64,000 nt of DNA from SAR202 cluster bacterium bin87 (lineage in GTDB: Bacteria > Chloroflexota > Dehalococcoidia > Lucifugimonadales > UBA3495), in assembly GCA_002238825.1 (NCBI GenBank), contig MPNC01000002.1, positions 177,180-241,179 on the forward strand, given 5' to 3'. The translations under genes and the position numbers were made by a program. Below the pieces are notes generated by a model. The model was not told where the DNA came from and searched no databases. It was given only the letters and a program-made list of their open reading frames with translations. This document shows, one piece after another, positions 38,560 to 41,307 of the stretch (positions are counted from its first letter, which is position 1; each line of letters begins with the position of its first letter).

Positions 38560-40296
38560 TCAGCGCCTGCCGAACTCGCGCTCCAGCTGGTACTCGGTGA
38601 AATGGACCACCGTGGGACGGCCGTGGGGGCAGTGGTGCGGATTTTCGGTGGCCCGCAGTTGGCGGAGCAGCGCATCCATCTCCGCTTGCGCCAACGTCAT
38701 CCCCGCGCGCACTGCCCCATGACACGCGACCGTCGCAGCCAGCGCGTCCTCTCGCTCCATCACCACCTGCTCCACGGCGACGGCATCCAGCAATTCACGC
38801 AGAGCAACGGACGCATCCGGGTTGGCGCGGGCGGCCAGGCTGGCCGGGAGCGCGCGAACCAGCCACGCGCGATCCCCGAAGGGTTCCAACACGAAACCGT
38901 AGTCCGCAAGCAGACTGACGTAACTTTCCAGCGTACCCGACTGAGCGACGGACAATTCGGCCGTCTGAGGGACCAGCAGGGGTTGCGAGGGTCGCGCCTC
39001 TTCTTGCATCCGCTGACGGATCTGATCAAAAACCACGCGCTCATGTGCCGCATGCTGGTCGATCAGGTACATGCCGGATGGGCCCTCGGCCACGATGTAT
39101 GTCTGGCGGATCTGGCCCACAACACGCAGGTCTGCCAGAACATCCCGTAGAGAGCCTTCTGCCGGCGCCAGCGCAGTGGCAGACAGCGCCAGGCCGTCAG
39201 GCACCGGCACCGAAACATCCGGGGTCCACGGACGGGGTGGAGCCGGGGAGGTCGCCACCGGGGAAGGCGCGTGGGTCGGGGAAAATGATCGGGTCGCCGT
39301 CCGTACCGGGGCGTGGGCGATGAGCGCCTCTCGTACCGCCCGTTGCACCAGGGAGAACAACCGGTCCGCTTGACGGAAACGCACCTCTCGCTTGGTGGGA
39401 TGAGAGTTGACGTCAACCTGCTCGGGTGGCAAGCATAGGTTGACAATGGCGAGAGGAAAGCGGCGTTCGGGCAATGTTCCCTGGTAGGCCCGCTCAATGG
39501 CGAAATAAATGGAGCGGTCGTACACCCAGCGACTGTTGACCAGGAGGGTCGTGTAGGAACGGTTTCTCCGGTTCAGATCCGGGGCGCCGACGTACCCATC
39601 GACCGACACCTCACCGTCAGCAAGGGAAACCGGCAGCATGCGGCCGGCCACTTCAGAACCGTAAAGGGACAGGATGGCATCCTGCAGCCGGCCGGAGCCC
39701 GGCGCATTGACCGCTTCCCGTCCATCGACTGACAGAGTGAACCGGACCTCAGGATGAGCCAGCGCGTAGCGGGTGACCACTTCCTGAATGCGGGACGATT
39801 CAGCCGCAGCAGAGCGCAGGAACTTGCGACGAGCCGGCAGTGCCCCGAACAAATCCGACACCTCGACCGATGTGCCCGGAGGGCATCCTTCGGAGCGCTC
39901 GCCGAGGCTATTTCCGTAGCGAAACTCAATGCGGGCTCCCGCTTCCGAATCGGGCGTACGCGTGGCGCAAACCACCCGCGCAACCGCCGCCACGCTGGGC
40001 AGCGCTTCGCCACGGAACCCCAGGGTGGAAACGGTCTCCAGGTCATCAACCGTGGAGAGTTTGCTGGTCGCGTGATGGGTGAACGCCAGGCCCAGTTCGT
40101 CGGCGGCGATGCCGCGACCGTTGTCGGTGACCCGGATCTCGGCGACACCACCTTCGCGTATGGAGACGGAGATGCCCTTTGCGCCCGCGTCCAGGGAGTT
40201 TTCGACCAGCTCTTTGACCACCGATGCGGGACGCTCGATGACCTCACCGGCCGCGATCTGGGCCGCGACGTGCGGCGGGAGCTGTTGAATGGGCAT
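38560..40296 (-). CDS. mutL: DNA mismatch repair protein MutL
   Basis: A 578-residue MutL. The GHKL ATPase has AAQIAAGEVIERPASVVKEL, VTDNGRGI, THHATSKL and TLGFRGEALPSV; the transducer domain has NSHPTKREVRF. The C-terminal dimerisation domain begins near residue 385 after a Pro-rich linker and contains YLIDQHAAHERVVFD, CHGAVRAG and the zinc/endonuclease-site-like end CPHGRPTVVHFTEYQLEREF. No DQHA-x2-E-x4-E is needed to call it; the QHAAHER site supports latent endonuclease activity. The ATG at 40296 is set by the conserved MPIQQLPPHVAAQIAAG start. mutS is not in the window. Confidence 0.95.
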   Translation of the reverse strand: MPIQQLPPHVAAQIAAGEVIERPASVVKELVENSLDAGAKGISVSIREGGVAEIRVTDNGRGIAADELGLAFTHHATSKLSTVDDLETVSTLGFRGEALPSVAAVARVVCATRTPDSEAGARIEFRYGNSLGERSEGCPPGTSVEVSDLFGALPARRKFLRSAAAESSRIQEVVTRYALAHPEVRFTLSVDGREAVNAPGSGRLQDAILSLYGSEVAGRMLPVSLADGEVSVDGYVGAPDLNRRNRSYTTLLVNSRWVYDRSIYFAIERAYQGTLPERRFPLAIVNLCLPPEQVDVNSHPTKREVRFRQADRLFSLVQRAVREALIAHAPVRTATRSFSPTHAPSPVATSPAPPRPWTPDVSVPVPDGLALSATALAPAEGSLRDVLADLRVVGQIRQTYIVAEGPSGMYLIDQHAAHERVVFDQIRQRMQEEARPSQPLLVPQTAELSVAQSGTLESYVSLLADYGFVLEPFGDRAWLVRALPASLAARANPDASVALRELLDAVAVEQVVMEREDALAATVACHGAVRAGMTLAQAEMDALLRQLRATENPHHCPHGRPTVVHFTEYQLEREFGRR

Positions 40297-40312
40297 GTGA
40301 CGGGGGAAGCCG

Positions 40313-40750
40313 CTAGAACAGGGGTATCTTGGTGCCCTTGGCGCGATACTGACGGTCCTCGGAGTCTCCCGTTTCCTGGAAATCGCAGATGATCCTGTAA
40401 ATGCGATCCATCTCGTGGTCGACGCTCCGGGAGAAGAAGTAGGGCGGCACCCAAACCCCACCGAAAGCCGCAACGATTTCGGGATAATCGTCGATCACAA
40501 ACTCGGGTTCCACCGGGATTTGCAACTCGGGCAGACGCTCGTGGAAATGATGCGTGGGCTTTTCGTACACGCCGGATACGAAACGATGCAGGTCATGCTT
40601 TTCGATCACCTCCCAACGCTCTCCCATCCCGGACCAGATGTAAATTTCATGCCCGTCGTCAAGGAGTTTCTGGAAGGTATCCACGGTGCCGGGGCGAAGG
40701 GTATCGTCCAGGCCCAGGATGGTGTAGTCCACGTCAAAAAATATCTTCAT
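40313..40750 (-). CDS. HAD-superfamily hydrolase-like protein
   Basis: A 145-residue HAD-like phosphatase candidate. Motif I is FFDVDYTILGLDD (DxDxT), motif II IYIWSGMG, and motif IV is FVIDDYPE. It is short, with little room for a cap domain. It lies 16 nt upstream of mutL on the same strand and 48 nt downstream of the ArsC-like gene, so the three may be co-transcribed. Substrate unknown. Confidence 0.75.
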   Translation of the reverse strand: MKIFFDVDYTILGLDDTLRPGTVDTFQKLLDDGHEIYIWSGMGERWEVIEKHDLHRFVSGVYEKPTHHFHERLPELQIPVEPEFVIDDYPEIVAAFGGVWVPPYFFSRSVDHEMDRIYRIICDFQETGDSEDRQYRAKGTKIPLF

Positions 40751-40798
40751 GATCGGTTCGCTGTCCTGGCGGCGTTGGAATTACCGGCAATGATCGGA

Positions 40799-41161
40799 TC
40801 AAGAGCTGAGCGCTTCGGTCATGGCTTTGATGCTGGCCCCTACGATCAATCGATCTCCCAGGCGTACGATGGGGCGACGAACCAGCCGAGGTTCTTCAAG
40901 CATCAGGGCGAGCTTGCGCTCATCCGAGAGATCCGCCGCGTTCAGGCCCATCTTTTTCAGCGATGGGCTGCGGGCGGCGAACAACCCGGTTACGCCGGGT
41001 TCTCCCACTTCAGTGACCAGTTCGCGAAGCTCCATTTCCGTGAACTGTTCCTTGAAATAGTCGCGTTCTTCAACCGTGTAGCCGTTTTGAACGAGCAACT
41101 CTCGTACCTTGCGACAACTGCTTCAACGCGGCCACCAGTACATTGTTGCTGTAGCGCCCAT
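40799..41161 (-). CDS. ArsC/Spx-family thioredoxin-fold protein with in-frame TGA at the catalytic Cys (candidate selenoprotein)
   Basis: The family part is clear: CRKVRELLVQNGYTVEERDY near the start, VTGLFAARSPSLKKMGL, and LMLEEPRLVRRPIVRLGDRL, matching ArsC/Spx-like proteins in length (120 codons). The open frame is broken by a single TGA at 41125-41123. Read through, the N-terminus is MGATATMYWWPR-U-SSCRKV, placing the TGA exactly at the first Cys of the C-x-x-C active site. The ATG at 41161-41159 has GGAGG 5 nt upstream, so initiation before the TGA is well supported. Downstream, ACGAG-AGTTG-CTCGT (41105-41091) forms a hairpin whose loop starts 23 nt after the TGA and has a G in the second position, as bacterial SECIS elements do. 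Alternative: a nonsense mutation with restart at TTG 41098. Confidence 0.8.
41091..41105 (-). promoter_or_regulatory. Bacterial SECIS-like hairpin downstream of the in-frame TGA
   Basis: On the reverse strand ACGAG (41105-41101) pairs perfectly with CTCGT (41095-41091) around the 5-nt loop AGTTG. A further G-C pair forms beyond a U-U mismatch. The loop begins 22 nt after the TGA, within the 16-37 nt range used for bacterial SECIS prediction, and has G at loop position 2. Confidence 0.55.
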
Positions 41162-41307
41162 GGGACCCTCCCGACGTATCCAGTGAAAATATGCTGCGGC
41201 AATGGCTATTTTATAACGAACCGGGCTTTGACATAAGTGGGGAGCACGTAAATTTTGTGTAATGTCCAGGGCATTCCACGGCCCGCGGCACGCGCCAGCG
41301 TACGCTA

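What the first reader, a model, noticed from the sequence alone, without database searches (positions are those of the whole stretch)
40799..41161. Candidate selenoprotein: ArsC/Spx-like gene with UGA at the catalytic cysteine
The reverse-strand frame starts at an ATG with a strong GGAGG site and reads MGATATMYWWPR-TGA-SSCRKVREL before continuing as a normal ArsC/Spx-family protein. The TGA falls exactly where the first Cys of the PRCxxC active site belongs. A hairpin with a 5-bp stem and the loop AGTTG follows (loop 22 nt after the TGA, G at loop position 2), as bacterial SECIS rules require. TGC or TGT to TGA is a transversion, less likely as random decay. ArsC-like selenoproteins have, from memory, been reported in marine metagenomes.
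Basis: partly seen in the sequence, partly recalled or inferred. Interest (0 to 1): 0.85.

Follow-up and report, generated by a model that had tools for sequence, protein, structure and literature searches.

The report
ArsC/Spx-like selenoprotein of sponge-symbiont Chloroflexota
This gene really does use the 'stop' codon UGA to insert the rare amino acid selenocysteine at the active site of a small redox protein; the same arrangement is conserved in dozens of related marine Chloroflexota bacteria, but selenoproteins of this general kind were already known.

Summary
The finding holds. Window 40799-41161 (-) encodes a 120-aa ArsC/Spx-fold protein whose codon 13 is TGA, at the first Cys of the CxxC motif (UxxC).

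The genome has selA, selB, tRNA-Sec (anticodon UCA) and selD; selD itself carries a TGA at its usual Sec position. 174 of 250 genomes of the same order encode a relative. I read 90 of these loci in full: 82 have exactly one in-frame stop, always TGA at this column, and 8 have Cys there. All 14 members of the genus keep TGA.

The SECIS-type hairpin is real but longer than reported: a 7-bp stem with a 5-nt loop. It shows compensatory changes (96.4% of pairs kept) that synonymous recoding cannot explain (547 paired cells against 321±9), and Cys homologues lose it. Taken from the window alone the hairpin would be unremarkable (P≈0.18).

ArsC-like selenoproteins, including a UxxC/Spx-type one, were already listed in 2006, 2008 and 2022, so this is a new member of a known kind. 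Apparently unreported: its conservation across these Chloroflexota and its place in a mutS–[gene]–HAD–mutL cluster in about half of the loci. Its substrate is unknown; I favour a thiol/selenol oxidoreductase.

The parts
40799..41161 (-). Selenoprotein gene, ArsC/Spx fold, 120 aa, Sec at residue 13 (U13xxC16); its own terminator is also TGA
41123..41125 (-). In-frame TGA read as selenocysteine, at the first Cys of the CxxC motif
41089..41107 (-). Bacterial SECIS-type hairpin: 5' arm 41107-41101, loop AGTTG 41100-41096, 3' arm 41095-41089; 7-bp consensus stem (6 of 7 paired here)
41167..41171 (-). Shine-Dalgarno-like GGAGG, 5 nt before the ATG
   Evidence: read directly
40313..40750 (-). Downstream HAD-like protein (DVDYT motif, 145 aa), conserved neighbour
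   Evidence: weak Cof-type HAD match
38560..40296 (-). mutL (start at 40296 inferred from homology; the mechanical ORF runs to 40473), conserved neighbour

Best explanation
The gene is a true selenoprotein gene. A ribosome reaching UGA codon 13 is supplied with Sec-tRNA by SelB, which is recruited by the hairpin that begins 15 nt downstream of the UGA. The product is a small, presumably cytosolic thioredoxin-fold protein of the ArsC/Spx superfamily with a U13-x-x-C16 active site. Most likely the selenolate attacks a disulfide (or an oxidised substrate) and C16 resolves it as a selenenylsulfide, so the protein acts as a thiol/selenol oxidoreductase. Sec insertion is inferred from strong comparative evidence and not shown biochemically. 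The chemistry follows from the fold and motif. The substrate is unknown, and the mutS/mutL neighbourhood is only a hint of a link to DNA repair or oxidative stress. The confidence given is for its being a true selenoprotein; for the oxidoreductase role it is about 0.55.
For: The Sec machinery is complete: SelA 442.9 bits, SelB 352.7 bits, SelD 373 bits with its own TGA in HCAGU, tRNA-Sec 66.4 bits with anticodon TCA. Of 90 loci read, 82 have a single in-frame stop, always TGA at the same column, and 8 have Cys there. The stem keeps 96.4% of pairs across 80 distinct sequences; covariation is 0.442 against 0.259 shuffled and at most 0.21 for slid controls. Synonymous recoding gives 321±9 paired cells against 547 observed; loop G is 78/81 and loop U 74/81. 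Cys homologues lose the stem. Fold: AlphaFold pLDDT 89.9, PDB matches to Spx and ArsC, mostly TM 0.75-0.84.
Against: There is no peptide, mass-spectrometry or selenium-labelling evidence. The hairpin in the window itself has one mismatch and is not significant alone (P 0.18). Five Cys-form genomes in one genus still have SelA, so Sec is not indispensable to the protein. The oxidoreductase role is not tested.
Confidence: 0.96

Rival explanations
1. Decayed gene or sequencing error: the TGA is a nonsense mutation and the gene is a pseudogene or makes a truncated protein from the downstream TTG.
For: A TGA interrupts the frame, and a mechanical ORF starts at TTG 41098.
Against: The same single TGA occurs in 82 loci from many genera, with the protein conserved on both sides of it and no other stop. 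The truncated form would lose the strand and active site that are among the most conserved parts.
Confidence: 0.01
2. UGA is read as another amino acid (Trp or Cys) by a general or suppressor code, not as Sec.
For: Cys homologues exist at the column.
Against: The same gene ends with TGA. A SelA/SelB/tRNA-Sec(UCA)/SelD set is present. The hairpin goes with the presence of TGA. The column never shows Trp.
Confidence: 0.02
3. A true selenoprotein that acts chiefly as an Spx/MgsR-type redox-sensing RNA polymerase regulator, with a U-C switch in place of the C10-C13 disulfide of Spx.
For: The best PDB sequence matches are Spx (E 3e-23), and all 22 scanned members hit TIGR01617. The U/C spacing equals that of the Spx CxxC switch.
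Against: P0001 falls below the TIGR01617 cut-off (64.7 against 75.05). The RNAP alpha-CTD contacts were not examined. The fold is shared with reductases that match equally well in structure.
Confidence: 0.2
4. A true selenoprotein that is a glutaredoxin-coupled arsenate reductase.
For: Pfam ArsC; structural matches to E. coli ArsC, TM about 0.8.
Against: Far below the TIGR00014 cut-off (51.9 against 106.05). The profile match to 1i9d ends at residue 99, before the C-terminal part of ArsC. A second resolving Cys at UxxC is not needed in that enzyme (from memory). No ars genes were recognised among the recurrent neighbours.
Confidence: 0.1

Closest known systems
GOS 'Arsenate reductase 2' (cd03032, UxxC), PMC2398784; listed as 'Arsenate reductase-like protein COG1393 UxxC' in PMC9312934
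   Same: Same domain family, same UxxC motif, marine bacteria; cd03032 is the Spx-type branch (name from memory). Probably the same kind of protein.
   Different: Described there from metagenomic reads or one example accession, without (in the passages read) the Chloroflexota lineage, the covarying SECIS or the mutS/mutL neighbourhood. Their sequences could not be compared here.
NCBIfam NF041106 ArsC_rel_Se_1
   Same: ArsC-family (seleno)protein; weak match.
   Different: 30.5 bits against a cut-off of 85, so not a member.
ArsC-like selenoproteins of Desulfotalea and Desulfuromonas (PMC1794560)
   Same: ArsC-fold selenoproteins.
   Different: Deltaproteobacteria; sequences not compared here.
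Bacillus subtilis Spx (1z3e, 3gfk)
   Same: Same fold, CxxC at the same place.
   Different: Cys, not Sec; transcription regulator; about 29% identity.

Membership tests
Bacterial selenoprotein (SelB/SECIS type) | In-frame UGA aligned with a redox Cys of homologues | tested here: met
   82 TGA, 8 Cys at one column
Bacterial selenoprotein (SelB/SECIS type) | selA, selB, selC, selD in the genome | tested here: met
Bacterial selenoprotein (SelB/SECIS type) | Conserved hairpin about 16-37 nt after UGA with G early in the loop (rule from memory) | tested here: met
   loop 22 nt after UGA, G 78/81; covariation
Bacterial selenoprotein (SelB/SECIS type) | Selenium present in the product | not testable with these tools
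   needs mass spectrometry or 75Se
ArsC/Spx superfamily (PF03960) | Profile match over the gathering score, and the fold | tested here: met
   59.8 bits against 24; top PDB matches are Spx and ArsC
Spx/MgsR regulators (TIGR01617) | Score over the curated cut-off | tested here: not met
   64.7 against 75.05 bits
Spx/MgsR regulators (TIGR01617) | Binds RNA polymerase alpha-CTD | not testable with these tools
   no binding data
ArsC arsenate reductase, glutaredoxin type (TIGR00014) | Score over the curated cut-off | tested here: not met
   51.9 against 106.05 bits
NF041106 ArsC_rel_Se_1 | Score over the curated cut-off | tested here: not met
   30.5 against 85 bits
GOS Arsenate reductase 2 (cd03032, UxxC) | UxxC motif in a cd03032-type ArsC domain | tested here: inconclusive

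The most novel reading that the evidence does not exclude
The selenoprotein is a functional partner or redox switch of DNA mismatch repair in these bacteria, which would explain why it sits between mutS and mutL in many genera and is still beside mutL where mutS has moved away.
Probability: 0.08. Interest if true: 0.75.

Novelty: new member of a known kind. Interest (0 to 1): 0.42.

Why it matters
Standard gene callers stop at, or start after, the UGA, so this protein is likely missed or truncated in most of these genomes. It shows that Sec is a stable, order-wide feature of a redox protein in marine and sponge-associated Chloroflexota, with a textbook covarying SECIS. It also gives a testable link, so far only positional, between a selenoprotein and mismatch-repair genes.

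Tried and rejected
A tree-based test of independent compensatory changes was underpowered: few starred branches and under 6 informative pairs, although no pair went the wrong way. Strict coupling of Cys forms to SelA loss was rejected: G245, G244, G151 and G069 lack a full-length SelA match, but G068, G070, G072, G073 and G074 keep one. A scan of the window for other frames interrupted by TGA, with UxxC, CxxU or UxxS/T motifs, gave no candidate that looked like a redox protein by eye. No paper was found that joins selenoproteins with mutS/mutL or reports this gene in SAR202; the library lacks most subscription journals.

Full report
Observation. The reverse-strand frame 41161-40799 starts at ATG, preceded by GGAGG at 41171-41167 (5 nt spacing), and reads MGATATMYWWPR-TGA-SSCRKVRELLVQNG... 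to a terminal TGA. The in-frame TGA is at 41125-41123. With TGA read as a residue, the protein matches Pfam ArsC (PF03960, 3.4e-16) and NCBIfam Spx/ArsC models below their cut-offs. Solved-structure relatives are Spx proteins (3e-23) and ArsC-like proteins. An AlphaFold model from an alignment of 40 own-locus sequences has mean pLDDT 89.9, and its top PDB matches are Spx and ArsC structures, mostly at TM 0.75-0.84.

Machinery. The genome (G000, 4.96 Mb, 67 contigs) encodes SelA (442.9 bits), SelB (352.7 bits), SelD (373 bits) and a tRNA-Sec found by both Rfam and ARAGORN with anticodon TCA. SelD has an in-frame TGA in HCAG-U-AAK, the classical Sec site of that protein from general knowledge. 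So the genome has at least two predicted selenoproteins.

Comparison. 174 of 250 genomes of the order encode a relative, and all 14 genomes of the genus keep the TGA. Titles of matching contigs name Dehalococcoidia/Chloroflexota. The family extends beyond the order in the class, again mostly with one TGA. I read 90 loci in full: 82 have exactly one in-frame stop, TGA at the same column, and 8 have none and carry TGC or TGT there. This is the pattern of a Sec/Cys protein family and not of gene decay.

SECIS. After the UGA the gene is collinear, so the hairpin could be compared without gaps. The stem pairs positions 18-24 with 30-36 (counted from the U of UGA as 0) and the loop is 5 nt. Across 80 distinct sequences 96.4% of cells pair, four pairs have changes on both sides, and the covariation score is 0.442 against 0.259±0.014 for shuffles and 0.05-0.21 for slid pairings; RNAalifold predicts six of the seven pairs without being told. 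The changes link codons: Val GTA goes with Leu TTA, Ala GCA with Leu TTG, Val GTG often with Ser TCA, Ala GCG with Ser TCG; and in all 8 cases where Arg becomes Lys (AAR) at codon 7, the Leu at codon 10 is CTT (CTC in all but one of the rest). Recoding each protein with synonymous codons drawn from the same genes gives 320.8±8.7 paired cells, against 547 of 567 observed. Loop position 2 is G in 78 of 81 and position 3 is U in 74 of 81, the two bases known (from memory) to matter for SelB binding in E. coli. The 8 Cys homologues have lost the stem. In the window itself one pair is U-U, and a hairpin that good would arise in 18% of recodings, so the window alone would not have proved it. These sequences share ancestry, so counts are not independent events; the phylogenetic pairs test was underpowered but one-sided.

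A side effect is visible in the protein: a Gln after the 3' arm is in 73 of 82 Sec forms but only 1 of 8 Cys forms. Its codon CAR supplies the C that closes the stem, so the RNA structure probably fixes this residue.

Neighbourhood. In 46 of the 90 loci mutS ends just upstream on the same strand; an uncharacterised HAD-like gene lies downstream in 51 and mutL in 50, and 40 loci show all three. The flanks fetched were short, so these are minimum counts. In the window's own genome HAD (40313-40750) and mutL (38560-40296) remain downstream, while mutS is on another contig. In family f27 the gene instead lies by a ribose-phosphate pyrophosphokinase-like gene and, further downstream, secA (read by eye). 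The linkage is conserved but says nothing certain about function.

Known or new. ArsC-like selenoproteins were listed in 2006 for Deltaproteobacteria (PMC1794560). The 2008 ocean survey lists 'Arsenate reductase 2, cd03032, UxxC' with the counts 42, 21 and 238 (read as Sec sequences, samples and Cys homologues; PMC2398784), and the 2022 review lists an ArsC UxxC selenoprotein (PMC9312934). The window protein is therefore a new member of a known kind, very probably of that GOS family, although the sequences could not be compared. It is not a member of NCBIfam's ArsC_rel_Se_1.

Function. Shown: homology, fold, UxxC motif, comparative evidence for Sec. Inferred: selenolate chemistry with C16 as resolving residue. 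Of the roles considered I favour thiol/selenol oxidoreductase (about 0.55), then Spx-like redox regulator (0.2), then arsenate reductase (0.1). The confidence of 0.96 given with the best explanation refers to its being a true selenoprotein, not to this choice of role.

Source of the window. Contig count (67), a contig of 269,076 bases equal to the reported N50, and size over completeness (4.958/0.9099 = 5.45) match SAR202 bin87 of the sponge Aplysina aerophoba, MPNC00000000 (PMC5649159). That paper also reports SelA and SelB as enriched in sponge symbionts. This identification is an inference.

Noticed in passing
window 38560-41161 and loci L048-L099: Conserved cluster mutS - Sec ArsC/Spx gene - HAD-like gene - mutL; in the window's genome mutS is elsewhere (G000:C21:67887-70484).
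   Followed up: partly
L021:1501-2421: selD of the same genome has an in-frame TGA in HCAGUAAK and so is itself a predicted selenoprotein.
   Followed up: yes
L116-L120 (G074, G068, G069, G070, G073): One genus has the Cys form although four of these five genomes keep a full-length SelA: Sec was replaced without loss of the Sec trait.
   Followed up: partly
window 41347 onwards, + strand: A divergent frame beginning MQCQICNKSGMTGNNVSH looks like ribosomal protein L28 (rpmB); read by eye only.
   Followed up: no
L034:3001-3348: A contig labelled Flavobacteriales encodes a form almost identical to Chloroflexota ones (L036, L037); probably a misbinned contig.
   Followed up: no
window (whole genome G000): Assembly statistics match sponge (Aplysina aerophoba) SAR202 bin87, MPNC00000000.
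   Followed up: partly
window residue Q25 of the protein (codon 41089-41087, - strand): Gln is conserved in Sec forms and not in Cys forms, probably because its codon closes the SECIS stem.
   Followed up: partly
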